A DNA stretch of 64,000 nucleotides from Dictyophora rubrovolvata (Eukaryota; Basidiomycota; Agaricomycetes; Phallales; Phallaceae): NCBI GenBank assembly GCA_029959195.1, contig CP114122.1, forward strand, positions 2,356,001 to 2,420,000. Direction: 5' to 3'. The translations under genes and the position numbers were made by a program. Positions 29,135 to 50,968 of the stretch are shown piece by piece. Every line of letters starts with the position of its first letter. Within the stretch, counting starts at the first letter, position 1. The notes beneath the pieces were generated by a model, which did no database searches, was not told the origin of the DNA, and was given only the letters and a program-made list of their open reading frames with translations.

Positions 29135-29988
29135 GGGCCATGAGAATGTGACGCGCAAGCCTACCGCGCTGCCGCGACATTGCCGCGACCTGCAAAAAAA
29201 CCTCCTATAGGGTACAAACTCAAGCTGTAAGGCTCAGTAGAGTGTTGAATATAATGGGTAGAAGGATCTGAATATTATATAACATACTTTAGAGAGATAA
29301 AATGAGAGTTAGGCATAGGTTGTGGCATATGATATGTCGCGGTGAAGTCGCGGTAAGAATTCCTTGTATGGGAATTATCGCGCTAAAGGCGCGGTACGAT
29401 TGCTATGTAAGGAATCTTCACCGCGCGAGTGGCCACATAAGGAATTCTTAACGCGCGAGTTGCTATGTAAGGAATCTTTACCGCGCCATTAGATAAGCAT
29501 TGTTCAAAGCACTTGCTTCGCTATTGGACAACTGCTCATTATCAATTTGATATATTTATTAATATTTTAATGGTTCAGATGTTTACTTTTCTGATATAAG
29601 CTATATAAGTCTAATAATTAAATTGTAAATACAGGATTGGTTCACATATCTATATCAGCAGTCAGCTGCATTTCTAGCCAATCATTTCTCTTCTACTGGA
29701 AAACCTAAAGAAAAGAGTTAGTTGAGTTTACACCAACTCAATATTCTGACTGACTTGTTGCTTTCTAGTTGCTGGAATATATCAGGCAGATTCATATCCT
29801 CCAAGAATGTTACCTGGATATAATCAAAGAGGTCATCATCTTCTAAGTAAAATACTTGGTAGCTTATGATATTTATATATACCAGGCAAACCATTTGGCT
29901 ATTTTATACATCCTGATTTTCCTCATATATGTTTTCCTTTATATGATAACTTCAAGTAACTCAAATACTTTTGTAGATTCAATATTTC
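29135..29988 (+). repeat. Left arm of a long inverted repeat (partner 50099-50943)
   Basis: Starting at GGGCCATGAGAAT, the arm is the reverse complement of 50943-50099 with only a few differences and small indels. The outer part is rich in CCGCGAC; a 30-bp periodic block of TAAGGAAT...CGCGCGAGT units spans about 29390-29490; the inner part is AT-rich. Length, inverted layout and CG-rich subterminal repeats suggest the ends of a DNA transposon. No target-site duplication is seen outside the two arms, and no transposase is found between them that can be tied to these ends. Confidence 0.85.
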
Positions 29989-30135
29989 AAGATAAGCATA
30001 TTCAGCCCAATTCTGTCACTTCGGGGCCAGCACATGTTCCTCCTATAATCAATGCAGCCACTAGGAGGGCACATTTTGCAGCAGGTGGTGGGTGGGGCTC
30101 ACGCGGTACACTGTCGCAGCAGCATGGTAGGCCGC
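29989..30135. other. Unique inner flank of the left arm
   Basis: The sequence continues an open frame from the arm and carries SGPAHVPPIINAATRRAHF and then a Gly-rich stretch. It is absent from the right side, where an LTR abuts the arm. It may be the beginning of the element's original coding region; no family is recognised. Confidence 0.35.
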
Positions 30136-30841
30136 TGTAAACAGTCAAAGACTATTTTACAAGTAGCTTTAGGTCACTTAGATAAACACACAGTTGAGTG
30201 TAGTAAATCCTTGTAGTAAAAAGCTAAGTGTCAGGGTATGCTAGCGTCGTCCCCTTATTTTCCTACATTTATCTTCGGTTCTGGTCTATTTTATTTATTT
30301 CCATATTTCTTGTATTCTATCCCATCTCTTGTGTTTCCCTCTCCTTCCGTATTCCCATTTTCCCTTCAACAGGCACTGAGCGCCCATTCTCATCAGAGCC
30401 ATGGCCTAGGCCCCGGCTAAAAGTCCGGGACCGGCGCGTATCCGCACCCAGTCCACAAACTGAAGGCCGTGTGTGGCCTTCACCGTTTTTCATAGTATAT
30501 AGTTAGTAGCCCTAGAGGAGGGATCCCTAAGTTTGTTCTCTTAGGATCCCCTCCCTCTAGGTGAGTTAGTATTATTCCTAGAATATATTTTGCTTAGAAT
30601 CCCCTCCCTCTAGTCTGAGTGAGTAGCCCTGACACTAAGGAGCACTTTAGATACATCTCAAGTATTTATACTAAAACAAAAGATTAAGTAATAATTATAA
30701 AAGTATTATAAGTAAGCAATAAAAGAAAGATTATTAATAAGTATTATTAAGATAGGAAGAAAAAGAATTAAAATTTCTCTAGAATAAGACAATGTGAAGT
30801 TCTGATTCTGCGGATGACTCGGACTTTATCTGACTCTTACA
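30136..30841 (-). mobile_element. Solo LTR, family E, split by a family A LTR
   Basis: The ends are TGTAAACAGTC and GACTCTTACA. Apart from the insertion at 30229-30634 it is the reverse complement of the LTR at 58464-58758. It is an old fossil of an LTR retrotransposon with no internal region left here. Confidence 0.72.
30229..30634 (+). mobile_element. Solo LTR, family A, with target duplication CTAAG
   Basis: Bounded by TGTCAGGG and CCCTGACA and flanked on both sides by CTAAG (30224-30228 and 30635-30639). The 406-bp unit recurs at 31266, 31467, 40034, 49704 and 60057. It contains two copies of a GGATCCCCTCCCTCTAG-like motif and a GGCCTAGGCC palindrome. Being inside a family E LTR, it is younger than that one. 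Confidence 0.85.
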
Positions 30842-31265
30842 TCCACCCTCCAACACTCATTCATGAGTGTTCAACTTTTACATCTGCCCTCCTATAAGAG
30901 TCTGGACTCTTATCCAAGTTCCCCGAGTCGGAGACTACAGACGTAGTCAGCTTGTCTTACTTTCATTTATTCTTTGTCTTTATTAATAGTTTCTTTCCAT
31001 AAGTTTCCTTTTATTTCTTATTAGATAATCTTTCTTTTTCTTATAAATACTCGAGATGTAGATATTTTATTCTTTAGCTTCTAATTCTACGAAGGTTACT
31101 ACACTCATTGTTGTCTGATCCTCGTTTTATCTGAAGTTCTTGTGTAAAAGTCTTCCGACTTTTACACCTCCACTGTACGATCTTGTGCAGTTTAACAAAT
31201 CCATCCTCCTTCCCCATTGCTTAATCCAGGCCAATCATCCTCTACCTCCAAAGGACTTGGGACTC
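30842..31265. other. AT-rich, LTR-like degenerate sequence
   Basis: Contains CTCTTACATC-like ends and the TACTACACTCA motif also found in LTR family E, so it may be a diverged relative. Boundaries cannot be set. Confidence 0.3.
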
Positions 31266-31466
31266 TGTCAGGGTATGCTAGTGTCATCCCCTTCTTTTCT
31301 TCCGTTTATCTTCGGTTCTTGTCTATCTTATTTATTTCCATCTTTCTCATATTTATCCCATCTCTTGCATTTTCCTTTCATTCTGCATTTTCCTTTCCTT
31401 CTGCATTCCCATTTTTCCCTTCAATGGGCACTGGGCACCTGTTCCCATCAGCACCATGGCCTAGGC
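31266..31466 (+). mobile_element. Truncated LTR, family A
   Basis: Begins TGTCAGGGTATGC and stops at the GGCCTAGGC palindrome, where the next family A copy begins. Roughly the first half of the LTR is present. Confidence 0.7.
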
Positions 31467-32516
31467 TGTCAGGGTACGCTAACGCCGTCCCTTTCGTTTC
31501 TTCCGTTTATCTTCGGTTCCTATCTATTTTATTTATTTCCACATTTCTCTTATTTTATCCCACTCCTTGTCTTCCCCTTTCCTTCCGTATTGTTACATAT
31601 GGTGGCCCAGGCTATTCTGGATAGTTCCGAAGAAGTCCAGATCACGGGGTCAGATGGGAGACGGAGTACTGAAGCACGGGGTGAGGGACTTGGCTTCAAC
31701 TTATATGTTGCGCCCACTCGCCCAGCTTACAATATCCTTCGATTTTGGAATACGAGGAAGTACGCAAGTATGTACAAGTCTGACGACATGTGATACAACG
31801 ATGGAGTACAAGTCCACGTCGTTGAAGACAATATGAACAACAAGTATGAGTTGACTCGAACATTAAATCTGAGCCAACTATGCAATATGGATTAAGAGTA
31901 CAAGATGGACTAGAGATAAGAGAATAACTGATTATATTCAGACTGAGGAACCCCAGCTTACAGCTGGGGGTTTAAATACAGGAAGGAGCAGAACTATGGG
32001 AATGGGGATAATGACAGATAAGGAAAGGTAGGGTAGACTAGTACGAGCCGGGGGTGATGCCAATATAATCTGGGTACCTTATTACTAAGTGACCTGGATA
32101 CATATCTCCATAAGGAAAATGTTTGATATGGAATACAGATTAAATACGGGTCTCAGAGTTGAAGGGGTAAATGGGGTACAGAGTACGGAGTTTGGGGTAG
32201 TCTGGGTTTGGACTGTGGGGCATGACATGTATTTCCATTTTTCCCTTCAATGGGCGCTGAGCGCCCGTTCCCATCAGAGCCATGGCCTAGGCCCTGGCTA
32301 AAAGCCTGGGACCGGCACATATCCGCGCCCAGTCCATGAACTGAAGGCCACATATGACCTTTGCCATTTTTCGTAGTATATAGTTAGTAGCCCTAGAGGA
32401 GGGATCCCTAAGTTTGTTCTCTTAGGATCCCCTCCCTCTAAGTGAGTTAGTATTATTCCCAGAATATATTCTCTTAGGATCCCCTCCCTCTAGTCTGAGT
32501 GAGTAGGCCTGACAGC
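31467..32516 (+). mobile_element. LTR, family A, split by a family B LTR
   Basis: Begins TGTCAGGGTACGC and ends CCTGACA at 32516. A family B LTR (31591-32227) is inserted after CCTTCCGTAT, with GTAT repeated on the far side. The nesting shows that B moved after A at this site. Confidence 0.8.
31591..32227 (+). mobile_element. Solo LTR, family B
   Basis: Runs from TGTTACATATGG to GCATGACA, about 637 bp, with a short target repeat (GTAT). Other copies lie at 35719-36375 and 48277-48924, and a diverged inverted one at 43063. The internal open frame shared by the copies is LTR sequence, not a gene. Confidence 0.82.
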
Positions 32517-32832
32517 TGCCCTCACGCCTCATCGCTCATGGAACAAGGATACATCACTGTTAATGCTGAAAACAAGTATGTCTGGACGAGTACTGGAAAG
32601 TCAATTGCCCGTTTCAATGGCGAATCCCTTTTGGCCACTATCAATTGCCAACTCGATGTCCAATGAATACCTGTTGCCACAACTGCCGTCCTCGCTTCTA
32701 CAATTAATTCATTCCCTTTCCCTGTCACTTTACCTGATGCTATCAACAATTTTTCATCTGTCAATGCATATGGTAGAGATGAAGAGGAGATTATATTGAG
32801 TGACAATGAATACTATGATGTATGCGGAGTAG

Positions 32833-33399
32833 TGATACGTGCGCAACAGGAGTGAACAGAAAGGAAAGGGAACCAAGTGGTAAGTGTGAGTTGAGGAAAA
32901 TAGTATAGGATAGGAATTATAAATATAGAGGAGTAGAAATAAAGCTTATTTGCTCAATTTCAGACTGAGGGAAAAGCTGCAATACAAAACTAAGGAATTT
33001 GATGATATTCTTGGTCTTAAAACTGTGGATTTTTATATACATGTGTAGCTCAGTGTCCGAGTGAAAAATGGAACACCGGTTATTTAAAAGTGATTAAAAC
33101 GAGGTAAGACCATGTGGAAAAATGAATTCATGGTCTGGGGATTGGAATTTAAGAGAAAGGAAAAGGTTTCGCTGAGTTATTAAAATGTAAAATAAGGGAA
33201 AAATATATAGTAAAATGTGAACACTAAGCAAAGCTAAGTTTAAAGGTGACACAGCCTTTATAATCATCATATGGAACCCAACCTTGGCACATATACAACG
33301 GACAGGCTGTGCAAGTCTTGGTTATTCCGGCTCGGGTGGTACTGAGCCCAAAGCATCCGTTCTGTCATTTCTCTTTGTACAGTGTTTTTGAGTACAACA
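32833..33399 (+). mobile_element. Solo LTR, family C, with target duplication GTAG
   Basis: Starts TGATACGTGCGC and ends GAGTACAACA; GTAG flanks both sides. It sits in the gag-like part of the Gypsy fossil. The partner copy at 36755-37308 is inverted. Confidence 0.8.
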
Positions 33400-34100
33400 G
33401 TAGTTAATAGCAATTTTAGTAGTGAATATGGAAATGTTGAAGCATACCCACTTATCCGAACCAAAGAGACGAAGGGAAAGGAATCTATTCGCACTACTCC
33501 TTATCCAAAGAAATTGAGATTTGATGGAGTAGAGATAACCAAGAAATCCGCTAACCCTTCTATACCTGTTACAGTTCCTTCTACATCATCTGCACCCCCG
33601 CCTACACATCCAATTCCAGCACCAGTACCACAACCGACATCCATATTGCCTAATCCAATGAGTTTACCTCCAGCCTTATGTCCTCAGGCACCTATTCAAT
33701 TCCCTGTTCCTGTGCCAAGTCACTTCCCAGTCCCTAATTCTATCTCAGCTCCAGCTCTGAAAGTTACGAATATTCCCTTTCCCTTATGAGGAGAAGAGAT
33801 CACTGACGTAAAAATGCAAGACCCAGTACCCACCATTGCTAAGAAAACAGTACACCATCCAGCGACCCCTAAGGCTACTAAGGAGAAACCTGAATCAGAA
33901 CCTACAGAACTTATCAAGAAATTCCGCAATTCTTTTGAATGAGAAGTTGTTATTGACAACGTCCTTAACCGTTTGTTGGATCAGAATGCAGGACTCACGA
34001 TTTGTGAAGTATTTGCCATTGCACCCTTACTCAGTAAATTATTGATTACCTAACTTCATCCTATCCGAGAGGAAGCCCAGATTATGAGTGTTTGCCAGGA

Positions 34101-34695
34101 TGTTAAGTTCCCGAAGTTACCAAAGATACCGGACTTCGGTTAATTCGGGCAGACTCGTGGGACCGATGTCACAGACAATCGGTGTACTGAGCAGGCTTCA
34201 ACTTATGTGTTGTGCCACTTACTTGTACGTGCTCAGTGATTTGCTTCGCAACACTCCACGGATAGCGGATATATCGGTCAGAGGTTCGGATGGAGTTTGG
34301 AGTGAGTCTGGATTTAGCGGCCAGATTTTAGAGATGGTAGTATCAAACAAGAATAGTCATGAGTCAGATGACTAGTTTGATTTCAGAACTGAGGAACTAG
34401 ATACATGATTCGGGGTTATTTATACTATGGGAATGTACTAGTTTGTCAGCACTGATAAAAGCGGTTTAACAATAAAACACGATTCAGATTACAATAAAAC
34501 AATAAGACTAAAACGGGAATGAGCAGATTTGGAATACAATCAGTTATTGTATTCTAATTCGGGTAATTCGGGTTTAACGGATTACTTCGGAGAAAACATA
34601 ATCATAATGGATGTGACATAAGTTTCATAATCTTCGGAGTTGTAATTTGGAGTAATATCGGTCAGCAGGTTTATTGGCAGATCTGGGTCTTGACA
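34101..34695 (+). mobile_element. Solo LTR, family D, with target duplication CAGGA
   Basis: Starts TGTTAAGTTCC and ends GTCTTGACA; CAGGA flanks both ends (34096-34100 and 34696-34700). A second copy lies at 58970-59565. Confidence 0.85.
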
Positions 34696-35718
34696 CAGGA
34701 TTATATCATAAAGGATGAACAAATTACCAGTTATCATCCTGAGGATGCCAAACTCATCGTTTTACCAGTTCAATTCAACAATGGATGTGAGATTGAAGTG
34801 CTTGTAGACTCAGGATCAACTATCAATTACATCAAAGAAAGTAGTGCTAACCTTACGGGAATAGTATACATGACCGGAACTCTGAAAATTATGAAAGACA
34901 CTTCCAGTCATGAAACATTGCTTTACAAGTGAGCTCACAAAGTGGATTTGTTTGTAGGAACCAATCTGTAGACTATGGCAGAAGAACTTTGGAAATCACC
35001 TTCGCTCCCACAAGGGATAATTCTAGGATGACCTTGGATGCATTTAAATCGAATTGAAATCCACGAACTCTCTGTGGGAACACATTTAGTCAAGAAAGGA
35101 CCTACTGGAAAGATAGAATGGTTGATAAATGCAGTACCATCTTGAGATGTTAAAGATCTGTACTATCAATACCAAGAAAATTTTTGACTGGAAAACCAAG
35201 CTTATGAAAAGATAGATCAAGAATCGTTAAAGAAGAAAGCACCTGACCTTCCCCAGATGTAGATTCATTTTTCACAGACCCTTATAATATTTGTTTCCCC
35301 ATCACTCTATTTATTTCCCTTCCTATTTATGAACCTGATGATGACCCAAGATTTATACCCAACCACTTTATTTATAGGCTACTCCTAAAACATTACGAAG
35401 AAAACCCCCAATATTATCCCCAATTCTCCGAGTTTCTTGCTGCATACAAGATGGTTGACAAGAAGATTCAATCTGTACCAGTGATACTTCCTCAAGATTG
35501 TCTTGTGACGAGAAAATTCCCCAAAGATCTCCTCATTTCCCTTTCCCCTTTATCCCCCCTTCCTCCGACATTTACTCCTACTTCCAAACTCACCGCCAAA
35601 TGACTCCGCATACTCTGCATAAACAATTCAGGTTTTCTCTGGCTTGAAGAAGAGAAGTTATTCATATCCGTCTTCCAGCAAAATGAAGCCATACTTGCCT
35701 TTGATGAAACAGAACAAG

Positions 35719-36375
35719 TGTTACATACGGTGGCCCGAAGTTATTCCGGATAGTTCCGAAGAAGTCCGGACCACGGGGTCAGACGGGAGATGGAGTACTG
35801 AAGTACGGGATGAGGGACTTGGCTTCAACTTATATGTTGCGCCCACTCGCCCAGCTTACAATATCCCTCGATTTTGGAATACGAGGAAGTATGCAAGTAT
35901 GTACAAGTCCGATGATGTGTGATACGATGACGGAGTACAAGTCCACGTCATCGAAGACGACGCGAACGATAAGTACAAGTTGACTCGAACATTAAGTCTG
36001 AGCCAACTACACAATACAGGTTAAGAGTATGAGACGGACTGGAGATGAGAGAGTAACTGATTAAACTGATTATATTCAGACTGAGGATCCACAGCTGAGG
36101 GAGCTGGGGTTTAAATACAGGAGGGAGGGGAACTACGTAAATGGGGATAGTGACAAATAAGGGAAAGTGGGAATTGACTAGTGCAAGCCAAGATGATGAT
36201 ATTATAATCTAAGTACCTTGTTGCTAAGTGCACGGGACAGAATTCCCCATAAGGAAATTCTGTGATATGGGGTACGGACAAGAATGTGGAGTACGGAGTT
36301 CGGGAAGTGGGACAGAATAGAGTACAGAGTTCGGACATGTCCGGATTTGGACTATGGGTCATGCGGGGCGTGACA
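35719..36375 (+). mobile_element. Solo LTR, family B
   Basis: Runs from TGTTACATACGG to GCGTGACA. Flanks ACAAG and ACGAG look like a slightly diverged 5-bp target duplication. Inserted in the Gypsy fossil before its reverse-transcriptase region. Confidence 0.8.
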
Positions 36376-36754
36376 ACGAGGAACCTTATGTTCAGACTAT
36401 TTTTCGGATTATATTATTCCAGTTGTCCAACACATTCCATGGATGAAGCCAATCCCATTCCTCCTGGAATTTGCACACAAGTCATCGAAGTGTTGAAGAA
36501 GAAGATTGATGTTGGAGTCTACGAATATAGTCAAGCCTCTTATTGGACCATAATGTTTTTCATTAAGAAGACAGATGGAGGAATTTGCCAGATCATTGAC
36601 CATCAGCCTCTTAATTCAGTCATGATTCGAGATGCAGGAATGCCTCCAAATACAGATGAGATGTTGGAACCATTCACAGGCACTTCAGTTTATTCCAGTT
36701 TCGATCTCTTATCAGGATATGACGCACGCAAAATATATGTGAAGAGTCGAGACC

Positions 36755-37308
36755 TGTTGCATGTGAAAACACTGTACAAGGAGAAACAGTAGAAATTGAT
36801 ACTTCGGGCTTAGTACTATCCGAGCTGGAATAACCAATACTCGCACAGCCCATCCCTCTTATATGCGATAACATTGTGTTCCCTAAGACAATTATAAAGG
36901 CCATGTTGTGTTTTTTTTCTTGATTTCACATTCCATTTTCATATTTTCTCCCTATTTTACATTTTAATCACTCGGTGAAACCTTTCCCTTAAATTCCAAT
37001 CCCCAGACCATGTATTCATTTTTCCACATAGTTTTACCTCATTTTGTTCACATTTAGATTACAAGTGTTCCGTTTTTCACTTGGACACTGAGCTACTCAT
37101 GTATATAAAAATCCACAGTTTTAAGACCAACAATATCATTAAATTCCTTAGTTTTGTATTGCAGCTTTTCCCTCAGTCTGAATTTGAGCAAATAAGCTTT
37201 ATTTTTCTCCTCTACATTTACAATTCCTATCCTACACTATTTTCCTCGACTCACACTTCCCACTTGGTTTCCTTTTCCTTCCTGTTTGCTCCTGTTGTGC
37301 ATGTATCA
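36755..37308 (-). mobile_element. Solo LTR, family C, inverted, target duplication GACC
   Basis: On the plus strand it runs from TGTTGCATGTG to GCATGTATCA with GACC on both sides (36751-36754 and 37309-37312). It is the reverse complement of 32833-33399 and interrupts the reverse-transcriptase region of the Gypsy fossil. Confidence 0.8.
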
Positions 37309-37411
37309 GACCTCACGTCATTCCACACGCCCTTAGGACTTTTGTGATCCACCGTCCTCCCTCAGAGATTCACAAATTCCATCACTGAATTTCAAAATTG
37401 CACTTCATTTA

Positions 37412-39232
37412 CAGTGGCTCACAAAACTGTCCCTATGTTTTTGCATTTTGAGAAGATTCATCTATAGCTCCTGAAATAAAACAGCTATCATTCCGAATTT
37501 CTATGACAAAAAACTACTATATATTAACTACAATTTGATCAACACATTGGGTAATTCCATTCAGAAATTCAAAAGATATGTCCAATTTAAAATGACTGCT
37601 CATAGGGACAGTTTTGTGAGGGGGTAGCCATAATGCAGAATTAGTGCTTTATATGACTTTTCTCAGTCTTTACTACTGATTTAACTCTTTCAGAAATACT
37701 TATTATGATGTTTTGACAAATTTCCACTAGTATTCCTTCCCATTCTCCCTTATATTCTCCCATGCTTGCTATAGTCTTCTTAGTGACTCTGGATACTTAT
37801 TAAGTTATCTTTTGGGCTGTTTCCATAAATTTTCAAGGAAAATTAATTGAAGACAATATAATAATTTTTCAATTAGTTTAATATCATGGTCTTTGAACTA
37901 TTCTACAACCATTTTTTATGAGTCTTCAGGATTCTCAGTTTACTGAAAAACAGCTTTGTCCATAGAAATTATCAATTTTCTAATGCTGGGGAGCAAGTGT
38001 TGATACAGAAACTTTTGATACTAGATCTCATTCATCTTACCTTCAATCTCACATAGATTTCCAATACCATTTGTCCCTTAATACCTTCATACTATCATAT
38101 TCTCATCATCATATTTGGCTATGTTTTGAGTGATTCTAACAAAGGATTATTCTCAAATTCTTTTCTATATATATTGTGAGTTTTTTGACATGCTCCCATT
38201 AATATTAATCCTATCTGACTAAATGACCCATTTCTAGTCCTCCACAGATTAGTTTTGATAGCATAATACAAAGTTCATTTACAGCACTTTTCAAAAGCTA
38301 AGGCGGGTCGGCTAAGAAATTTCCCACCTGAGAATGAGGATTTCTCAAGCACTATGTAAGATAATTGCCTACTTTTTATTGCAATGGAATTGTATAACTT
38401 TTATCTAGCACTTGCCCATATTTTTTGGGAGTTAATTGTGTTGAGTGTCTTAAAAAATCCAATATTTCAAAAACAGTCACCCGCCTTAGCTTTCAAAAAG
38501 CGCTGTAATACCTATAATGACTCTGTTTCAGCAGTGGCCCTTTAGTCTTCATAACTGCCTTGAACTCATGCTTCTCAGGGTTCTCTCTAACTAATTATTT
38601 AGATATGTGGCTTAGGATAATGAAAATCATATATTCAGTGGCTCAATAGGCACTATCTGGTTCCTCAGAGGTGACTTTGTAGGTGGAATACTATATATTA
38701 GCAAGAGAGAGTTTTGAGATATAATTATTAGGAAGGGTTCTTTTGTCTTTTTCAATGGTTCTTAGTATTTGTACTAATAATACATCTGTTGGAATATGTC
38801 AGAGTGGGGATAGCTTTGATAGTTCTCCTTGAAAATGATATTTTCTCTATAAGCAGTAGTGATAGATTGCATGATAGTAGACAGAACAAAGATGGAAGAA
38901 AAAGTTAAGATAAGTTAGTATAAATATCAATGAATGATCAAAGAACAATATGTGAGCCTAATTGTAACATTTTACTCACTGTTAAGACAAGCTTTCCTTG
39001 GGTTTCCTAGGTTGAGATACCCCCTCATAAAACTGTCCCTATGAGCAGTCATTTTAAATTGAACATATCTTTTGAATTTATGAATGAAATTACCTGATTT
39101 TTTGATCAGATTGTAGCTGATATATAGTAGTTTCCTGTCATAGAAATTCAGAATGATAGCTGTTTTATTTCAGGAGCTATAGATGAAGCTTCTCAAAATG
39201 CGAAAACATAGGGACAGTTTTGTGAGCCACTG
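37412..39232 (-). mobile_element. Tc1/mariner-like DNA transposon, degenerate
   Basis: A 1.8-kb element flanked by TA dinucleotides (37410-37411 and 39233-39234), with terminal arms of about 215 bp. Each arm starts with CAGTGGCTCACAAAACTGTC and also holds, at its inner end, an inverted copy of that sequence (near 37600-37625 and 39015-39040). The interior is AT-rich. Minus-strand translation shows only faint Tc1-like traces with many stops in every frame, so the transposase is dead. A MITE (38282-38505) is inserted in it. The element itself sits in the Gypsy fossil. Confidence 0.78.
38282..38505. mobile_element. MITE with TA target duplication
   Basis: A 224-bp non-coding unit with ends CAGCACTTTTCAAAAGCTAA and the inverted match TTAGCTTTCAAAAAGCGCTG, flanked by TA. 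Terminal repeats of about 28 bp include GGCGGGT. It is probably mobilised by a Tc1/mariner relative other than its host element, because the end sequences differ. Confidence 0.8.
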
Positions 39233-40033
39233 TATCTTGCAACCCAAGTTCCCGACTAAAGCTAGTGTTATGATTGACAATGTTAGAATCCAAGGACCGC
39301 ATACATGCTACAAGCAAGCCAATGGAACTTTTGAAGTTCTTCCTCAGAATTCAGGAATCTGATGTTTCATATGGGAACATGCAGTTGATGTTCATCACAC
39401 TCTTCACAGACTCAATCATGCTGGTGCCACCATCTCTCCAAAGAAGTCAAAGATAGCACAGCCCAAGATTGTACTTATTGGATAAAAACTAAGCTACACT
39501 GGACGATTACCTGATGAGAAATGTGTCAAGAAGATCAAGACATGGCCACCTCCAACTACAGTCACTCAAGTTCATCAATTCTTAGGACTTTGCAGAACAA
39601 TGCGCATATGGATCAAGAATTATTCTGCATGATCACAACTGCTCTCAGAACTAGTTTGAAAAGAAGTACCCTTTGAATGGATGTCAGTTCAACAAGCCAC
39701 ATTTGAAGACTTGAAAAATGAAATCATTAATTCTCCCGCACTTGTCCCCATTGATTATTCCTCGCCGCATCTAGTCATCCTTGCTGTCAACACTTCTGTC
39801 ATTGCGATCAGATTTATTTTGTACCAGATGGACTCTGAAGGCCGTAGAAGACCTGTTCATTTTGAATCTCTCCCCATTTCTCACACCGAAGCAAAGTATA
39901 GTCAAGCAAAACTTGAATTATACGGATTATATCGTGCTCTTAAAGCCTACCGATATTACATCGCCGGCCTCCTCAATTTTATCGTTGAAGTTGATGCATC
40001 CTACATCAAATCAATGATCAACAATCCAGATAT

Positions 40034-40388
40034 TGTCAGGGCTACTCACTCAGACTAGAGGGAGGGGATCCTAAGAGAACAAACTTAGGGATCCCTCCTC
40101 TAGGACTACTAACTATATACTATGAAAAAATGGCGAAGGCCATATGTGGCCTTCGGTTCATGGACTGGGTGTGGATACGCACCGGTCCCGGATCTTTAGC
40201 TGGGGCCTAGGCCATGGCTCTGATGGGAATGGGCGCTCAGTGCCTATTGGAGGGAAAGAAGGGAATATGGAAGGAAGGGGGAATGCAGGAAATGGGATAA
40301 AATATGAGAAATAAGGAAATGAATAAAATAAACCAGAACTGAAGATAAACGAAGGAAAATAAGGGGACAATGCTAGCGTACCCTGACA
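40034..40388 (-). mobile_element. LTR, family A, inverted, at the junction of two Gypsy fossils
   Basis: Runs TGTCAGGG to CCCTGACA. The flanks do not match each other, so there is no target duplication. It joins a plus-strand RNase H region to a minus-strand integrase region from another element, which suggests recombination between LTR A copies. Confidence 0.75.
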
Positions 40389-42440: not shown

Positions 42441-43062
42441 TGTTGAAGATAGACAGTGCCACTAAGTGTGAGTGCTTGTGTAGTTAGTTTTAGCTTAGTC
42501 ACACACTTGCCTAAAGGTTCAAGGCTTCGCCTTGAACTCTTTAGCTATAGCTTGTAATATAAGCTATATTCTGCTGCTTGTAATATAAGCTATATTCTGC
42601 TGCTTGTAATATAAGCTATATTCTGCTGCTTGTAATATAAGCTATATTCTGCTGCTTGTAATATAAGCTATATTCTGCTGCTTGTAATATAAGCTATATT
42701 CTGCTGCTTGTAATATAAGCTATATTACTCTAGCCATTGTTAGGTTATGGGCCCCGCTAGCGATCCATCCAGTTCTTCTAATGACCTGTGTCAAGCATTT
42801 AAGTTTCCAAAGTTGAATGGTCAGAACTACACCTTGTGGGCAGGCTATATGAAGTCAGCCCTTCAAGCTCGATACTTGTGGCTTGTAGTCCAAGGGACAG
42901 AGACATGTCCGAAAAAGCCTGCAAGCTCTCAGCCTGACAAAGTAACTGAGGCTGCCTGGAAAGCTGAAAAGAAGCAGTATCTGGAGTGGATGCAGAGAAA
43001 TCAAGTGGCACAGGGTATGATGCTTGGTGCGGCTGATACATCACAGTGGCCGCATGTCAAGA
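42441..43062 (+). mobile_element. Fossil Ty1/Copia 5' end: LTR plus start of gag
   Basis: Starts TGTTGAAGATAGACAG, an LTR of about 300 bp that contains the 26-bp minisatellite. The start of a Copia gag begins at 42747, recognised by FPKLNGQNYTLWAGYMKSAL and AWKAEKKQYLEWMQRNQVAQ. It is cut off by an inverted LTR at 43063. Only the 5' end remains. Confidence 0.75.
42550..42727. repeat. 26-bp minisatellite, about seven units, inside a Copia LTR
   Basis: Units begin with GCTTGTAATATAAGC and continue CTATATTCTGCT; starts fall every 26 bp at 42550, 42576, 42602, 42628, 42654, 42680 and 42706. Units are identical by eye except the last, which is cut short. The core AATATAAGCTATATT is close to a palindrome, so single strands could fold into repeated hairpins. 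Confidence 0.95.
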
Positions 43063-43545
43063 TGTCATGCTCCGCATGCCACACCTTCCTTATTTGGAAG
43101 TCCGATCCCATTCCGCTTATTTCTATACTCACCCTGCATCTCCATAGCAATCTCATCCCATACTTGTCAGTACTCTGTCCGGACTTCAAGTCCGTCACCT
43201 TCCTTATGGGGAAACCAGCTCCTGACTCTTAGTAATAAGGAATGAAGATTTTATAATCATCACCCCTAGCTGTGTACAACCATATGCTACCTTTCCTTAT
43301 TTATTCTTATCCCCATTCCTGTAGTTCCATTCCCTCTTGTATTTAAACCCCCAGTTTCCAGCTGTGGATCCCTAGTCTGAATATCAGCTTTATTAGTCTC
43401 ATCTCGTACTCTCTAAGTCCCTGCCACTCCGAAACTGAGGGATATATAAAGCTGGGCAAGTGGGCGCAGCTTATAAGCTGAAGCCGAGTCCCTTGTCCTG
43501 TACTTCCATACTCCGTCTTCTGTCCGCTGTCGCGCACCAAAATCT
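43063..43545 (-). mobile_element. Diverged LTR related to family B, inverted
   Basis: Starts TGTCATGCTCCGC, the inverted form of the family B end. It shares GTATTTAAACCCCC, GTGGATCC and CATACTCCGTC motifs. The far end is unclear and put near 43545. Confidence 0.6.
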
Positions 43546-43650
43546 TCCTAATAAGGAAACATTCCGAATTTTGGTTCAAAGCGGAGTTTCAAACTACCAA
43601 AAACTTAACCGATACACCACAGCCTCTTGAAATCAAAACCCTTACAAAAA

Positions 43651-44250
43651 ATGGCCGCATTTTCATTTCACTATACATCATCAATTTCTTTGCCCATTCC
43701 AGCATCTCCCACCGAGTCATTACCCCCCTCCAACGATGAATCTATATCACCTTTTCGTTTTTCGCCTTCCAGTCCAAGGACATACGATTTGGATCTGCAT
43801 ACGACTCTTTATATCTATAGTTCCCAATATGCGAGTCTCGACATCGACGAAGAAACGTACCTCCCGAAGTTCCCTCCACCTCTTATTATTCGTCAATGCA
43901 GAAGTTCGGATTTGGTTCACCCCGGTCTCATGTTTGGAGAAAAGGTTTATATCGAGGAACGATTAGACTGGTTTACAATTATTAACGTTTATTCTACACC
44001 CGAATCAGCCATTAAAGACTCATATCAGATTTGGTTAGTGACACAAGAAGGGTTCGAATTTACATTCCTGGTTCTAGATGTGCCAAGTCGTTGGGTTGTC
44101 ATGAAAAACATAAAAACACAAAAACATAGCCCATATAGACCAGCCAATCTTGTTCCTGTAGATCCTCAAATGTCTCGTTTTTCACCCCATTCGCCAGAAC
44201 CAATATCTCTCCCCTCTTCTCCATCCAAACGATCCTTCCGAAAGATCTGA
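43651..44250 (+). CDS. Uncharacterised single-exon gene, 199 residues (cargo gene 1)
   Basis: An intact frame starts MAAFSFHYTSSISLPIPASP after an A-rich leader and ends SFRKI. The first 50 residues are Ser/Pro-rich; a folded-looking middle has LHTTLYIYSSQYASLDIDEE, then PPPLIIRQC, GEKVYIEERLDWFTIINVYS, SYQIWLVTQEGFEFTFLVLD and VPSRWVV. The tail is again Ser/Pro-rich (SPHSPEPISLPSSPSKRS). No signal peptide, helix bundle or known motif is seen. The next gene shares the middle pattern, so the two are probable paralogues. It has no stops or frame breaks, although everything around it is transposon debris. Function unknown. Confidence 0.6.
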   Translation: MAAFSFHYTSSISLPIPASPTESLPPSNDESISPFRFSPSSPRTYDLDLHTTLYIYSSQYASLDIDEETYLPKFPPPLIIRQCRSSDLVHPGLMFGEKVYIEERLDWFTIINVYSTPESAIKDSYQIWLVTQEGFEFTFLVLDVPSRWVVMKNIKTQKHSPYRPANLVPVDPQMSRFSPHSPEPISLPSSPSKRSFRKI

Positions 44251-44388
44251 CGTGTTTGCTCAAACCTTCTTGGACGAAATTAGGACAAAAGGCTTGATTA
44301 GGATAAGCAATTAGATTTGTATTTCATCTCCTTCTTTCTTTCTGGACATTTCATTAGTGCTTAAAAATTTTGGTTAACTCATATCATC

Positions 44389-44955
44389 ATGTCGGACAAT
44401 AACGATACTCCTACTTCCCCTATTCCCCTTTTTCAACTCCCTTTCTTCCCTTTTGAATATCGTTCTTCTCTCAGATTCGGACCCAACCCTAATTTCCTCT
44501 CACAACTTCGCGTTTACAATACTCTTGTTTCTGAAATTGATGTCGACCCCTCCACAATGCTTCCGATTACTCCACAGCCACTAATGGAGATTACTATTCC
44601 TTATGACAATCTGGAGATAGGATATCCACGAGCTTTAACCCTGTACGAACGAACCAACGTCAATGTCATGGACGAATTGTATGAGTTTGTCGAGTTCCTT
44701 TCAACAAATCGTCAAGAAGAATCAATCTGGAGACTGGTCTTTCGTCATCAATTTCGAAGTTATACTCAATTCTTATTCATAGACGCACCCCTATCTGCCA
44801 TCCCATCCCCTCCCGACTACTCTGTTGGAAATCAAATCCTCCCTTCCTATTCCGATCTCCAATCCAATCTCGTTCAAGATCTGGTATTGTTAAGCGTTGC
44901 CATAGCCATTATTATTGCGCCACAGCCACGAAGAAGAAGATCTCGTCAACAATAA
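44389..44955 (+). CDS. Uncharacterised single-exon gene, 188 residues (cargo gene 2)
   Basis: Begins MSDNNDTPTSPIPLFQLPFF 138 bp after the previous stop. The middle resembles cargo gene 1 in order and spacing: EIDVDPSTMLPITPQPLMEI against SLDIDEETYLPKFPPPLIIR; LTLYERTNVNVMDELYEFVE against VYIEERLDWFTIINVYS; ESIWRLVFRH and FLFIDAPLSAI against SYQIWLVTQE and FLVLDVPSRWV. The C-terminus has a hydrophobic stretch (LLSVAIAIIIAP) followed by PRRRRSRQQ, possibly a tail anchor with a basic end. No known domain is recognised. Intact and probably expressed, but function is unknown. Confidence 0.58.
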   Translation: MSDNNDTPTSPIPLFQLPFFPFEYRSSLRFGPNPNFLSQLRVYNTLVSEIDVDPSTMLPITPQPLMEITIPYDNLEIGYPRALTLYERTNVNVMDELYEFVEFLSTNRQEESIWRLVFRHQFRSYTQFLFIDAPLSAIPSPPDYSVGNQILPSYSDLQSNLVQDLVLLSVAIAIIIAPQPRRRRSRQQ

Positions 44956-45884
44956 CCAGATCAGTAAGAAGTTTGGGATGGTAAGATTATAGTTTTGGGT
45001 AAGAGGTAGCGCGAGAAGTGCCAGATGGTGATTTTGGTAAAGCTATGCTGGGAATCCGGTTTCATTGTCTTCTTTTGATCTCTTTTTGTTTCTCTTTTTG
45101 TTTCAACATATTTCTCCTATTCCCCCTAACCACATATGCGATTCCTCTTTTTTCTGTAATTGTATCCTCCATCGTTTTCTCCTTTTTCTTTTGTTTCTTT
45201 GTTCTCTTTTTGTTTCCTTTTGTTATCATGGCGAATGATGAGTGATCATTCTGCTTTCCTTTATGTTTCCAAATGGTATATATACTGCATGTAAATAATT
45301 GTAACAGCAGCAATCTACCGGAACGGTTGTCTCAAGTTTAGTTCAGTTTAAGTCAAGTTCAAGTCAAGTTTCGTCTCTAGTCTATTTCTACGCTCATGTC
45401 TATTTCTTTGGATTACTCTGAGTGAGGCCTTGGAGTATAAACTCAACGATTCGTATTGTCGTTGAAGCCTTACTAACTTTAAACAGATTATCATCGCTGT
45501 ATTATCGACGGCGTATTGACTCACCATTTTATCGCAACTCACATTTATCGTCTCCCTCACACACACACGATCTTAGGATCATCATTTTTTTGTTGTTGTT
45601 GGTTTTTATATCGACGCACATACACTCACTAAATATCATATTATTCCCCCACCCTCCTCCTTACGAAATTAGCACCAGGACCCGCTCCACGGAGACTAGA
45701 CGGCCTCAAACAAAATATCTTCGTAGTTTTTCCGATTGTATATATAGCTATGACATTTAGCTATTATCTTCGGATCGTTACACCACCCCTGATGATCTGG
45801 ACTTTCTCAGAGACATCCGGGATAGTCCCAGACCACCGTACATAACAAAACCTCTCAACAGAAAGCTTGTTCTGGCCAGCAGTT
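44956..45884. other. Downstream flank of the cargo genes
   Basis: T-rich plus-strand sequence at about 45060-45230 and a run of TCAAGT/AGTTCA repeats near 45330-45370. No gene. A sharp change to hAT coding sequence occurs near 45885. Confidence 0.4.
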
Positions 45885-47016
45885 ATTGTCAGCAGAGAGT
45901 TATCCAACACTGTATAAAGCTCTCCCTGCATTGGAATACCTTCAATCTGAATGGGAGAAGCTTCAAGACAAATATGTCGATGATGAGGAGGATATCGTCC
46001 CTATCATTCAAGCTGGCCTTGAGAAGTTATCCATATACTACCTTAAGATGGAAGATACTGATGCATATGGAAATGCGCTAAGTAAATAATCTTATTTTAA
46101 TTGGTTTTATTTCTCAACTTGCAGTTTTTTTTACAGTTCTCACCCCCTACATTAAGATGCATTACCTGAAAAAATGGTGGAAAGACAAGTCTCCATCAGA
46201 TCCTATAAAAACTTTAGCAGATCAGGCAAAGGAAGCTTTTATTGAAAAGGCGCATGAATTTCATTAGGATTTTTCAGTTGTTAAATCATCATCATAATAT
46301 AGTTTAACATGAAGTATGCAGAGGGCCAAACCACTTCAAAATCTCAGCTGAAACCCGGTGGTGAGTCCATATGGGGTGATATGTTTGACGAACACGATAT
46401 CACACCATTGGGAAGTGAGGCTGAACACTACTTGAATGAGCCAGTAACTGCCCATCTGGATGTGGGTGGCCCTAGTAGTTTGGCTTATTGGAAGGTATTA
46501 CTTCTTCATTCGATATATTTTATGGAATGACTTCTTTCTTTTAGTCAGTTCAGCATGTCTACCCACTTCTCAGCAAGATGGCCATTGACTACCTTGCAAT
46601 TCAAGGCTCGGCTACTCCAGTAGAACATGTTTGAAGCAGTGCCACTGATACCGATACAAAGAAGTGAAATAGGTTGTCCTCGGATCGTTTATCAGCTTTA
46701 TAGCTTCTTAAAACGGTTTATAGACGAGAGCAGGAATAAAAACTATCTGAGGAGGAGAGAGCAAAGCGGGTGGAGGAGATATTGATGATTATCAACAAGG
46801 AGGATTGGGTATATGATTTTGCCAATGGAATACCGCTTCAATTCCCCAAGTTGGAACTTGAAATATTATATTAATTAATATTGAGTTAAATACATATGTT
46901 TTTGAAGAGTCTAAACTGATCAAACTGGTTTCAAACCAAACTCAAACCGTGATGGGTTGCCAAGTACGAACCAGTTTCAGACTGAACTGAACTGGACCAA
47001 ACTGGATCCATCACTA
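45885..47016 (+). mobile_element. hAT transposon, 3' half
   Basis: Carries the C-terminal part of a hAT transposase over three exon-like frames: SYPTLYKALPALEYLQSEWE (45886-46089), then KKWWKDKSPSDPIKTLADQA, then LNEPVTAHLDVGGPSSLAYW and VYPLLSKMAIDYLAIQGSAT. The last two match the hAT dimerisation region. The frame is broken after SATPVE. The right terminus CTGGATCCATCACTA ends at 47016 and equals that of the hAT piece at 60462-62543. No matching left terminus is found, so the 5' half is missing. Confidence 0.75.
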
Positions 47017-48276
47017 GGAATGTTCACTTGTTGTCAAAATCGGCTCTATTGTGCTCAGAACTGCAGGTCAGGTTTCATTTTATTTCTGTTTATTTCTGTA
47101 TTCTGCATATTATATCATACATAGTTCCATTCCTCCCATTTTCCCCATCCCCAGTGAAAACCAAGTCCAGCAGAGGCAAACAGTGCAGACTGAAATACTC
47201 TACTACAGCATGGCAACAAAGCGCAAGCAGTTCCCAAGATGGAGACACACGTACTAAAAGCGGTTTTTGATATGAGTTTTGTGCAAGCTAATACCATAGA
47301 TTGAAGTAGAAACTGACTTACAACATTCAAAGCAAAAAAAACAACGCCAATTTGAGTAGCAAGGGAGTCTACTAAGTAATCCGAAGCCCACTTTAGCGCA
47401 AGAACTTGAATTGAATAGTGTGTCATGGCATATCTTATTTGTTGTGACGATGTCAGTTGAGATCAACTATATTTGGGTTTTTCAGTCCTGACATTGAGCT
47501 AGATATGAAAACTTTGCAAGAAGCCGAAACAAACCTTGAAAACAGTGATCATACCACTAGTGTATATCAACAACCCATTCCAGATAAATCTATTAACTGT
47601 ATCAATAGAATATATTGATTAGTTTTCAAATTCAAGCATGTACTTATCTGCATAACGTGTATATGCATGTTCAACATCCGAGTGGGATGGTGTTGCTGCT
47701 ACTGTTGCTGGTGGTGATGGTGGTCAAAGGGGAAGGGAAGTTGTCATGGGCTAAAAGCAAAGAAGTCTACGCAGAAATAAACTGGCTTCAACGAAATGGG
47801 TGCTATAATGAGAATTTAGTAGAAAATCCCTAATCATACTAATTGTGAAATCTCACTGAAATATATATGGAAGCAGATGTAAACAGACAGCACAGACAGT
47901 GTACCATCTGAACAGATTCATCTCAAGCACCCACAGCAATGTGCACATACAATCATCTTGACTTTTCACTGGGAGTTTAGCACTCATCACGTAAAAAACT
48001 ATCCACTAGTGCTCACATATCTCCACCTGACTCTACTCACACCCTCAACTTGAAGAGCGGGCTGAAACACTTATGAATCATTCCAAAACTGTGCTTTTCA
48101 GTCTCAAGGTGAATCATCCCAATCCAATATCTTTTCATCATCGACGCTCCGTGCCTCTAATGCAACAGAATGCTCTTGCTACCGACAATCTCATCACCAT
48201 CAGCAGCAGCACGACTGGGGTCAACAACACGGGGATTGCACTGAGAAATGGTATTCAGACCAGTATTCAGACCAGT
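47017..48276. other. Unassigned sequence in the island
   Basis: No coding or repeat family could be supported. Short frames are scattered. At 48250-48276 a small tandem GTATTCAGACCA repeat precedes a family B LTR. Confidence 0.35.
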
Positions 48277-48924
48277 TGTTACGTACAGTGGCCTAGAGCT
48301 ATTCCAGATAGTTCTGAAGAAGTCTGGACCACAGGGTCAGACGGGAGATGGAGTACTGAAGTACAGGGTGAGGGACTTGGCTTCAACTTATATGTTGCAC
48401 CCACTCACCCAGCTTACGATATCCCTCGATTTTGGAATACGAGGAAGTACGCAAGTACATACAAGTCCAATGACGTGTGATATGATGACGGAGTACAAGT
48501 CCACGTCATCGAAGATAATGTAAATGATAAGTATGAGTTGACTCAAACATTCAGTCCAAGTCAACTATGCAATACGGATTAAGAGTATGAGATGGATTAG
48601 AGATGAGAGAGTAACTGATTAAACTGATTATATTCAGACTGAGGATCCACAGCTGAGGGAGCTGGGGTTTAAATACAGGAGGGAGGGGAACTACATCAAT
48701 GGGGATAATGACAAATAAGAGAAAGTGGGAATTAACTAGTGCAAGCCAAGATGACAACCAGGTACCTTATTACTAAGTGACCGGAATACACATCCCCTTA
48801 AGGAAGGTGTCTGATACGGAGTACAGATGGAGTACGGGTCTTGGAGTTAAGGGGAAATACGGGGTATGTAGTACAGGATTCAGAATAGTCCGGGTTTGGA
48901 CTCTGGGGCACGCGGAGCATGACA
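48277..48924 (+). mobile_element. Solo LTR, family B, target duplication CCAGT
   Basis: Runs TGTTACGTACAG to GCATGACA with CCAGT on both sides (48272-48276 and 48925-48929). It is inserted in a short tandem repeat (CAGTATTCAGAC). Confidence 0.85.
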
Positions 48925-49703
48925 CCAGTATTCAGACCAGTCCTGAGATTGTTGATATATGTTAGGGATGAAGACAAGACAATAAAGCACTGGTGGAAAG
49001 TTTCGTTACATACATAATATCTCTATTTCATGCTAAGTTCATGACAGTTCCGAACAAGATGGCTAAATTTGTTGCAACACCAAAACAGAATTAGTGTTGA
49101 AGGAATGGGAATTTTATTTTTGCGTCAGTCATGTTCATGTCATAATTTGTGATTGAAATTTCCTGTGATATCGTATTGAGTTCTATTTTTGCCCTTGTGT
49201 TATTTTAATTATATGAGTACAATGGTCTCAAGAACTCAGGAAAATCAATTCATATAACTAAAGGCTCACTAGCAACTCATGGGCAAGATTATACTATGAG
49301 TAACATCAATGCAGTAGTTTATGTTTTAGAACAACCTGCTACTACTCAAGAAATTTATTATAAAATTAGGATCGAATGGGTTTGACAACACCACCACCTT
49401 ATTCCAGACCCTACACAAGATAGCTGGATGAAATTTATTCCCGAGAACCCACCCTGTTCTATTCTCACTGCTAGCGAGTGAACCTGGATGACCGATCCCT
49501 ATGACAAAACTGTCATTGATTACCTCTGGCAGCAAGTACTTCCTATATCAACTCCTAAAAAATATGATTTAACAAAATCATTCAATCAGAGATAAACCCT
49601 TCAGCAGAGGCTAGCCATACTAGCTCACCTATAATGAATATTAGGTCCAATAAATTTCATCAGAAATTTCAAACTGTCGAGAGTGATATAGAAACAGAAA
49701 TAG
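48925..49703. other. Degenerate retroelement-like sequence
   Basis: Plus-strand fragments around 49360-49600 read like weathered retroelement coding sequence, but no domain is certain. Confidence 0.3.
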
Positions 49704-50098
49704 TGTCAGGGCTACTCTCTCAGACTAGAGGGAGGGGATCGTAAGCAAGATATATTCTAGGAATAATACTAACTCACCTAGAGGGAGGGGATCCTAAGAG
49801 AACAAACTTAGGGATCCCTCCTCTAGGACTACTAACTATATACTATGAAAAACAGCGAAGGCCACACGTGGCCTTCGGTTCATGGATACACGCTGGTCCC
49901 AGACTTTTAGCTGGGGCCTAGGCCATGGCTCTGATGAGAACGGGCGCTGAGCGCCCGTTGGAGGAAAAATGGGAATATGGAAGGAGAGGGAAATGCAAGA
50001 GATGGGATAGAATACAAGAAATATGGAAATAAATAAAATAGACCAGAACCGAAGATAAATGTAGAAAAATAAGGGGACGACGCTAGCGTACCCTGACA
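49704..50098 (-). mobile_element. LTR, family A, inverted, abutting the right arm
   Basis: Runs TGTCAGGG to CCCTGACA. Its end is the exact point where the right inverted arm begins. No target duplication is seen. This suggests that the island's inner right boundary was set by an insertion or recombination at this LTR. Confidence 0.8.
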
Positions 50099-50943
50099 GA
50101 AATATTGAATCTATAAAAGTATTTGAGTTACTTGAAGTTATCATATAAAGGAAAACATATATGAGGATAATCAGGATGTATAAAATAGCCAAATGGTTCA
50201 TCTGGTATATATAAATATCATAAGCTACCGAGTATTTTACTTAGAAGATGATGACCTCTTTGATTATATCCAGGTAACATTCTTAGAGGATATGAATCTG
50301 CCTGATATATTCCAGCAACTAGAAAGCAACAAGTCAGTCAGAATATTGAGTTGGTGTAAACTCAACTAACTCTTTTCTTTAGATTTTCCAGTAGAAGAGA
50401 AACAATTGGCTAGAAATGCAGCTGACTGCTGATATAGATATGTGAACCAATCCTGTATTTACAATTTAATTATTAGACTTATATAGCTTATATCAGAAAA
50501 GTAAACATCTGAACCATTAAAATATTAATAAATAGATAATGAGCAGTTGTCCAATAGCGAAGCAAGTGCTTTGAACAATGCTTATCTAATGGCGCGGTAA
50601 AGATTCCTTATGTGGCAACTCGCGCGTTAAGAATTCCTTATGTGGCCACTCGCGCGGTGAAGATTCCTTACATAGCAATCGTACCGCGCCTTTAGCGCGA
50701 TAATTCCCATACAAGGAATTCTTACCGCGACTTCACCGCGACATATCATATGCCACAACCTATGCCTAACTCTCATTTTATCTCTCTAAAGTATGTTATA
50801 TAATATTCAGATCCTTCTACCCATTATATTCAACACTCTACTGAGCCTTACAGCTTGAGTTTGTACCCTATAGGAGGTTTTTTTGCAGGTCGCGGCAATG
50901 TCGCGGCAGCGCGGTAGGCTTGCGCGTCAAATTCTCATGGCCC
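50099..50943 (-). repeat. Right arm of a long inverted repeat (partner 29135-29988)
   Basis: Reverse complement of the left arm, ending ATTCTCATGGCCC. It carries the same CGCG-rich 30-bp periodic block (about 50595-50700) and the outer CCGCGAC motifs. The outer end lies 25 bp before the start codon of the F-box gene at 50969. Confidence 0.85.
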
Positions 50944-50968
50944 TCTCGACTCCGAGTCTCCATGCACC

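What the first reader, a model, noticed from the sequence alone, without database searches (positions are those of the whole stretch)
29135..50943. A 21.8-kb transposon island framed by two near-identical 850-bp inverted arms
Seen: 29135-29988 and 50099-50943 are reverse complements with few differences, while everything between is old nested transposon debris plus two intact genes. Known: long terminal inverted repeats with CG-rich subterminal repeats mark some large DNA transposons of Agaricomycetes (KDZ-type and others). Inference: either a large DNA element that has collected insertions, or two copies of one element facing each other. No target duplication is visible, and no transposase can be tied to the arms. 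The contrast between well-kept arms and decayed contents suggests gene conversion between arms or recent movement.
Basis: partly seen in the sequence, partly recalled or inferred. Interest (0 to 1): 0.75.

Follow-up and report, generated by a model that had tools for sequence, protein, structure and literature searches.

The report
Two copies of one jumping element
The two mirrored arms are not the ends of one giant element but two separately inserted, closely related copies of one fungal DNA transposon, whose single complete long relative elsewhere in the genome seems to carry a transposase fused to unusual extra domains and perhaps a TET-like enzyme gene.

Summary
The arms are real: 29135-29988 and 50099-50943, 97.3% identical over 854 columns. 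They are not the ends of one 21.8-kb element. Each is a 3'-truncated copy of a family with imperfect inverted ends (GGGC...GCCC). The genome holds six complete 1,019-bp copies, 99.6-100% identical, each with a perfect 9-bp target duplication, and one 8.0-kb copy (TSD CAACAACGT). The short form is the 8.0-kb form minus about 7.0 kb.

The left arm carries the short form's deletion junction. The right arm ends before it and is followed, behind an LTR, by the only other trace of the 8-kb interior that the search found, so its form is undecided. The arms' outer 9-mers differ: two insertions. But the arms share seven substitutions seen in no other copy, so they are each other's closest relatives, through local transposition or gene conversion.

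The 8-kb form encodes a transposase-like protein: weak GCM-like finger, an Asp/Asp/CxxH/Glu layout and a USP-like Cys/His pattern (both read by eye), and a PHD finger. On the opposite strand lies a possible, weakly supported TET-like dioxygenase gene. Pfam's MULE and KDZ models do not detect this locus. The island is ordinary; the parent element may be an undescribed lineage.

The parts
29126..29134 (+). outer 9-mer ATCGTCAAT of the left copy, candidate target duplication; no exact inner partner found
29135..30135 (+). left arm: copy of the short 1,019-bp form, positions 1-999, contiguous across the 920|921 deletion junction
   Evidence: 97.2% over 1,002 columns to complete copy L006; parent 1-920 and 7914-7992 adjoin here
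30136..30841 (+). LTR (TGTAAACAG...CTCTTACA), probably the 5' LTR of a retroelement, inserted in the left copy after element position 999, itself split by a nested solo LTR
30229..30634 (+). nested solo LTR (TGTCAGGG...CCTGACA) with perfect 5-bp duplication CTAAG
49208..49703 (+). fragment of the 8-kb parent's transposase-like reading frame (parent from about 3822 to 4319; ORF residues about 834-1000), orientation opposite to the right arm, frameshifted
   Evidence: 96.4% over 495 columns; 94.5% over 527 columns when the alignment runs 28 bases into the LTR, and tblastn 90-92% in two frames; one of two places found for the parent interior
49704..50098 (-). solo LTR without matching flanks (ATTTC / CTATT) between the ORF fragment and the right arm; proposed recombination joint
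50099..50943 (-). right arm: 5' end (positions 1-852) of a copy whose form (short or full-length) is undecided
   Evidence: 96.4% over 855 columns to complete copy L006; 96.5% over 854 to the parent
50944..50952 (.). outer 9-mer TCTCGACTC of the right copy, different from the left one
58439..58463 (-). 25-bp piece like element positions 995-1019 directly after an LTR (58464-58758) of the family that interrupts the left copy; possibly the left copy's displaced tail
   Evidence: the following 9-mer ATAATGAAC does not match ATCGTCAAT
11693..11793 (+). probable paralogous unfilled site for the complete copy on C8 (left flank 84 bp at 97.6%, one TACATGGAG, 17 bases of right flank)

Best explanation
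The two arms are two separate insertions, in opposite orientation, of one DNA transposon family with 9-bp target duplications. The left one is a short, internally deleted form; both are broken by LTR insertions. They are each other's closest relatives, most likely because one copy gave rise to the other by local transposition, or because the arms later exchanged sequence by gene conversion. Shown: shared ends, 9-bp duplications at complete copies elsewhere, a probable unfilled site, the shared deletion junction, differing outer flanks, seven substitutions private to the two arms, and a piece of the parent's gene beside the right arm. Inferred: cut-and-paste movement of both forms by the transposase-like protein of the 8-kb parent, binding the GC-rich ends; LTR-LTR recombination behind the right arm; and that the island has no unit function.
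For: Six of six complete 1,019-bp copies have perfect 9-bp TSDs. The 8,011-bp parent has CAACAACGT on both sides. The C11 copy matches 8 of 9. All nine short copies found (six complete, left arm, truncated C9:199320, internally deleted C11) cross the 920|921 junction. The outer 9-mers of the arms differ. Probable unfilled site at 11693-11793 for the C8 copy. Arms share 11 differences from the six-copy consensus, seven of them absent from the parent, C11 and C9:199320 wherever these can be compared. Another pair of copies lies 24 kb apart on C2, and two such pairs were reached by only 527 of 100,000 random placements, which fits local hopping or a taste for repeat-rich regions.
Against: Both arms have lost their 3' ends, so neither one's own 9-bp duplication can be shown. 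Whether the right copy is short or full-length cannot be read from its sequence. One site (755) groups the left arm with the young copies and the right arm with the parent, C11 and C9:199320, in conflict with the seven shared sites. Six of the seven shared private changes are C>T or G>A, so recurrent mutation at hot spots could explain some, though the seventh is T>A. The 25-bp tail at 58439-58463 is not fully explained.
Confidence: 0.87

Rival explanations
1. One large (21.8-kb) DNA element or composite transposon with 850-bp terminal inverted repeats moved as a unit.
For: Two long near-identical inverted arms enclose the interval, and the arms are each other's closest relatives.
Against: Outer 9-mers differ (ATCGTCAAT vs TCTCGACTC), while the family makes 9-bp duplications. 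The arm occurs alone as a complete 1,019-bp element at six other places.
Confidence: 0.05
2. Refinement A: the right arm belongs to a full-length copy, with two LTRs inserted in it in opposite directions whose recombination flipped the stretch between them; the arms then became alike by gene conversion.
For: The fragment of the parent's gene lies just behind the right arm's LTR, in the reversed order that such an inversion gives; the LTR has non-matching flanks; the search found no other trace of the interior outside the parent; conflict at site 755.
Against: Needs gene conversion over about 590 bp (sites 178-763) to explain the seven shared private substitutions; the inversion is inferred.
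Confidence: 0.45
3. Refinement B: the right arm is a second short-form copy, a sister or daughter of the left one; the gene fragment beside it comes from a separate full-length insertion joined to it by LTR-LTR recombination.
For: Seven substitutions shared only by the two arms, spread over the arm; the fragment's orientation is opposite to the arm; clustering of copies.
Against: Needs an additional full-length copy in the same place, of which the search found nothing else; site 755.
Confidence: 0.45
4. The inverted arrangement is secondary: the two copies once lay in the same direction and a later inversion (breakpoints in retroelement sequence around 31-34 kb and 60 kb) turned the right one round.
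For: A retroelement LTR split the left copy after position 999 (30136-30841); an LTR of the same family on the other strand (58758-58464) is followed directly by GCCAC and a piece like element positions 1000-1019. The LTR at 60057-60461 has no matching 5-bp duplication (GATTC / GCAAG).
Against: The 9-mer after the displaced tail (ATAATGAAC) agrees with ATCGTCAAT at only 5 of 9 positions. No partner LTR with the complementary flanks is among the four LTRs listed.
Confidence: 0.2

Closest known systems
Mutator-like elements (MULE) and their outgroup Rehavkus
   Same: 9-bp target duplication; terminal inverted repeats of tens of bp; a GCM-like zinc finger (weak; that such fingers occur in MULE transposases is recalled) and, as in Rehavkus per PMC6446971 Table 1, a PHD finger; a second gene on the other strand, as in some MULEs of that table.
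   Different: Pfam MULE (PF10551) hits three other places in this genome, two above its cut-off, but not the parent; profile comparison with two of those gave no relationship (few sequences, low power); a USP-like region and a TET-like gene are not mentioned in the passages of PMC6446971 that I saw.
KDZ (Kyakuja-Dileera-Zisupton) transposons of basidiomycetes
   Same: DNA transposons of the same kind of host, some carrying TET/JBP dioxygenase genes (PMC12730594).
   Different: 7- or 8-bp TSDs in the passages read, 9 here; the two Kyakuja families described there have no TIRs; Pfam KDZ (PF18758) has 7 matches in this genome, none at the parent.
TET-positive DNA transposons of fungi (Kojima 2025, PMC12730594)
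   Same: Transposase gene plus a candidate TET-like 2OG-Fe(II) dioxygenase gene inside one element with TSDs.
   Different: [quoted passage not shown] the candidate enzyme here shows HxD, not the HxE of that paper's PE type, and is only weakly supported.
Ac/Ds-type internally deleted derivatives (recalled, general knowledge)
   Same: Short form keeps both ends of the long form (920 and 99 bp) and lacks the genes, so must be moved in trans.
   Different: Different TSD length and transposase.

Membership tests
Mutator-like elements (MULE) | 8-11 bp target duplication (PMC6446971) | tested here: met
   9 bp perfect at 7 of 8 copies with both ends, 8 of 9 bp at the eighth
Mutator-like elements (MULE) | MULE-type DDE transposase domain | tested here: not met
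   No PF10551 match in the ORF at E<=1 or at the parent locus at E<=10; hhalign with two MULEs of this genome, probability 0.2%. A D268, D342, C383-x-x-H, TTN(A/P)(E/Q)E layout was read by eye only.
Mutator-like elements (MULE) | terminal inverted repeats (some MULEs lack them) | tested here: met
   imperfect, 85% over 47 columns between the parent's two ends
KDZ transposons | KDZ transposase domain (PF18758) | tested here: not met
   7 matches in the genome at E<=1, none at C2:2407474-2415484; none in the ORF scan
KDZ transposons | 7- or 8-bp TSD | tested here: not met
   9 bp; 7 and 8 bp from PMC12730594 passages
TET-positive DNA transposon | TET/JBP-type 2OG-Fe(II) dioxygenase inside the element | tested here: inconclusive
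   66%-identical homologue P0007 matches PF20515 over 9-209 of 211 at E 8e-4, 19.9 bits, under the 27-bit cut-off; P0008, P0009 and the element's own spliced protein have no match to it; PF20515 found nothing in the genome or in the 14 controls; HxD and distal H present in the element's protein and P0007, HxD not aligned in P0008 and P0009
Composite transposon of 21.8 kb | one target duplication flanking both outer ends | tested here: not met
Deletion derivative of a longer element | both ends match the long form, one internal deletion | tested here: met

The most novel reading that the evidence does not exclude
The 8-kb parent represents an undescribed superfamily or deep lineage of basidiomycete cut-and-paste transposons, with 9-bp target duplications, in which the transposase is fused to a deubiquitinase-like protease domain and a PHD chromatin reader and accompanied, on the opposite strand, by a TET-like DNA demethylase. 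It would be an element that carries its own tools to reopen silenced chromatin, and its short derivatives, such as the left arm, profit from them.
Probability: 0.35. Interest if true: 0.72.

Novelty: new variant of a known kind. Interest (0 to 1): 0.5.

Why it matters
The island itself is a common outcome of transposon nesting and shows how two insertions of one family can mimic a giant element. The by-product is of more interest. The genome contains one long copy whose main reading frame is open, with very young short derivatives (three of six complete copies identical), and relatives of its large protein occur in Mycena, Schizophyllum and Coniophora as proteins without a transposon name. If the TET-like gene and the protease-like domain are real, this adds a 9-bp-TSD lineage to the known TET-carrying transposons of fungi and makes it testable whether a demethylase encoded by one copy reactivates its short derivatives.

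Tried and rejected
One 21.8-kb element: not supported, differing outer 9-mers. KDZ and Pfam-MULE membership: not met. No gene conversion: I first concluded this (and wrote it in note 3), because each arm has about as many changes from the consensus as separate them; the direct count shows that the arms share seven private substitutions, so I withdrew it, split the reading of the right arm into refinements A and B, and no longer call the right arm a full-length copy. Structure prediction of the homologues P0001 and P0007 gave mean pLDDT 36.0 and 36.6, so no fold search was run. PDB profile searches: with A1 only PHD-finger chains stand out (best E 1.1e-6, 43 chains up to E 1); nothing for the USP-like region, one chance hit at E 1.2 for the core and one at E 0.26 for the dioxygenase. 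NCBIfam: nothing for four proteins. A second-round protein search with the alignment gave five proteins, all already known. Pfam on eight window ORFs: retroelement domains in three (one of these, the copia gag, below cut-off), weak sub-cut-off matches in two, none in three. The short relative at C5:1952450 (about 260 bp, similar ends) has no matching 9-bp flanks (by eye). The outer 9-mer of the right arm was first taken one base off (note 1); corrected. Notes give the parent as 8,012 bp; the script gives 8,011.
Full report
Observation. The arms exist as described and are 97.3% identical over 854 columns.

What the arms are. The left arm as query gave 13 matching stretches in the genome, including itself and the right arm (the tool calls such counts lower bounds). 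Six other places hold complete elements of exactly 1,019 bp (L003-L008), starting GGGCCATGAGAATTTG and ending TAAATTCTTGTAGCCC, 99.6-100% identical to one another. All six have perfect 9-bp direct repeats at their ends: GAAGTGATA, TTTTGGTGA, CCGTGACGA, TGTTAATCT, GTCGGCCAC and TACATGGAG. A probable unfilled counterpart of one copy lies in the window itself: at 11693-11793 84 bp of the left flank of the C8 copy (97.6%), a single TACATGGAG and 17 bases of its right flank run on without the element; beyond that similarity stops.

The long form. One copy, on C2, holds about 7.0 kb more between positions 920 and 921. I first took this for a nested insertion, but the extra stretch shows no duplication at its joints (by eye), while the outer ends carry CAACAACGT on both sides and the stretch codes for a transposase-like protein. 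The simpler reading is that this 8,011-bp copy is the parent form and that the 1,019-bp form is its deletion derivative. All nine short copies found (six complete, the left arm, a 5'-truncated one at C9:199320, and one with further internal loss on C11) cross the same joint, so one deletion founded them. A search with the 7-kb interior found two places: itself and window 49210-49703.

Left and right. The left arm runs without a break across the 920|921 joint (29135-30135), so it is a short-form copy. The right arm stops at position 852 at a solo LTR (49704-50098), so its form cannot be read. Directly beyond that LTR lies the fragment of the parent's interior, 49208-49703 = parent about 3822-4319, 96.4% over 495 columns, in the reverse order to the arm. 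The LTR has non-matching flanks, ATTTC and CTATT. Two LTRs inserted in opposite directions in one full-length copy, followed by recombination between them, would give this order (refinement A). A short copy joined by LTR-LTR recombination to a piece of another, full-length insertion would also do (refinement B).

Not one element, but close kin. The outer 9-mers are ATCGTCAAT and TCTCGACTC. Against the six-copy consensus the left arm has 25 substitutions in 998 compared sites (19 C>T or G>A, 13 of these at CpG), the right arm 20 in 842 (15, 4 at CpG), C11 20 in 917, C9:199320 9 in 696, the parent's ends 8 in 1,015, and the six young copies 0-2 in 1,019. Over the stretch common to both arms they differ from each other at 14 of 845 sites, and from young copy L052 at 16 of 851 (left) and 20 of 842 (right). 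They share 11 differences from the consensus. Seven of these (alignment columns 178, 272, 444, 446, 531, 573, 763; six C>T or G>A, one T>A) occur in none of the parent, C11 and C9:199320 where those have a base. One column (755) instead groups the left arm with the young copies. The arms are therefore each other's closest relatives in this set.

Clustering. The 11 positions with a copy (the window's two counted apart, the C5 relative left out) include two pairs closer than 30 kb; 527 of 100,000 uniform random placements gave as many, with five contig lengths approximated by their mean. Local hopping or preference for repeat-rich regions is possible.

The parent's proteins. One stop-free frame of 1,117 aa (L048:4308-7661, minus) has a weak GCM zinc-finger match (E 3e-4, 21.2 bits, cut-off 25) and a weak PHD match (E 0.035, 14.6 bits, cut-off 24). 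A profile of seven sequences, the frame included, finds PHD fingers of solved structures (best E 1.1e-6). Read by eye from the alignments: D268 in (T/S)DAA (7 of 7 sequences), D342 in DFSxA (5 of 7; missing from the gene models P0005 and P0006), GCxQHF at 382-387 (6 of 7), then a TTN(A/P)(E/Q)E stretch at 473 (6 of 7), a layout that recalls Mutator-type DDE transposases; and NSCWLD at 582 with a later H(Y/F)...DG at 823-839, as in ubiquitin-specific proteases (family motifs recalled). NSCWLD is present in four of the six sequences that reach that region and missing in the two Mycena proteins. Neither reading is confirmed by a profile search. The protein search gave six relatives: one 75% identical and five at 27-33%.

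A second gene lies on the opposite strand. With six short introns chosen by script (84 of the combinations tried stay open, so splice sites are not certain) it gives 442 aa. The search gave three relatives: one 66% identical and two at 30%. The 66% relative matches Pfam's Tet-like 2OG-Fe(II) oxygenase family over nearly the whole model, at E 8e-4 but below the curated cut-off; the two others and the element's own protein do not match, and the family model found nothing in this genome or in the control genomes. The HxD and downstream H of such enzymes are present in the element's protein and its closest relative; in the two distant ones the HxD does not align. I rate TET-like as likely but unproven.

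Known kinds. In PMC12730594 (abstract, sections 18 and 23 and search passages read) TET-positive transposons of fungi are listed in named lineages, with TSDs of 7 bp (Kyakuja, hAT7), 8 bp (Zisupton), 6, 3 and 2 bp in the passages seen; no 9-bp or Mutator-like one is named there. In PMC6446971 (search passages only, including parts of Table 1) MULEs have 8-11 bp TSDs, and Rehavkus has 9 bp and a PHD finger. Eight literature searches listed no paper whose title or abstract start describes such an element; the listings are capped, only these two papers were opened, and only open-licence papers are held. Repbase could not be searched. In this genome Pfam's MULE model finds three places (two above cut-off) and KDZ seven matches (six above), none at the parent.

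How it most likely works (inference). A full-length copy supplies a transposase-like protein that recognises the GC-rich ends and moves the short form, which keeps 920 bp of one end and 99 bp of the other. Variants of TAAGGAATCTTNACCGCGC repeated inside the first 370 bp (sequence, by eye) look like binding sites. The C>T-rich decay of the older copies suggests methylation or RIP-like mutation, which would make a demethylase useful to such an element.

Open points. The 25-bp tail piece at 58439-58463 sits exactly behind an LTR (58464-58758) of the family that cuts the left copy, in the opposite orientation, and starts at the 5 bases that a duplication would repeat (GCCGC vs GCCAC). It may be the left copy's tail displaced by an inversion, but its following 9-mer agrees with the left one at only 5 of 9 bases.

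Noticed in passing
window 58439-58463 (minus) and 58464-58758: A 25-bp piece like element positions 995-1019, with four transitions, directly behind an LTR; matches the split site of the left copy but lies inverted 28 kb away, with a non-matching 9-mer beyond it.
   Followed up: partly
window 60057-60461, 49704-50098, 40034-40388: Three of four listed LTRs of one family lack matching 5-bp flanks, against one (30229-30634) with a perfect CTAAG duplication: a possible sign of LTR-LTR recombination in the island.
   Followed up: partly
window 51050-52702 (+): 551-residue stop-free stretch just outside the right arm, only a weak LRR match (E 0.013); by eye resembles F-box/LRR proteins of mushrooms (recalled).
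   Followed up: no
window 43609-44247 and 44389-44952 (+): Two neighbouring open frames inside the island without a Pfam match at E<=0.1.
   Followed up: partly
window 28439-29027 and 62933-63513: About 600 bp at 76% identity in direct orientation on the two outer sides of the repeat-rich region.
   Followed up: no
G000:C5:1952450 (L019): A relative of about 260 bp with similar ends (element 5-185 and 986-1017) but no matching 9-bp flanks.
   Followed up: partly
window 42550-42726: Perfect direct repeats with offsets of 52, 78 and 104 bp, i.e. a 26-bp period.
   Followed up: no
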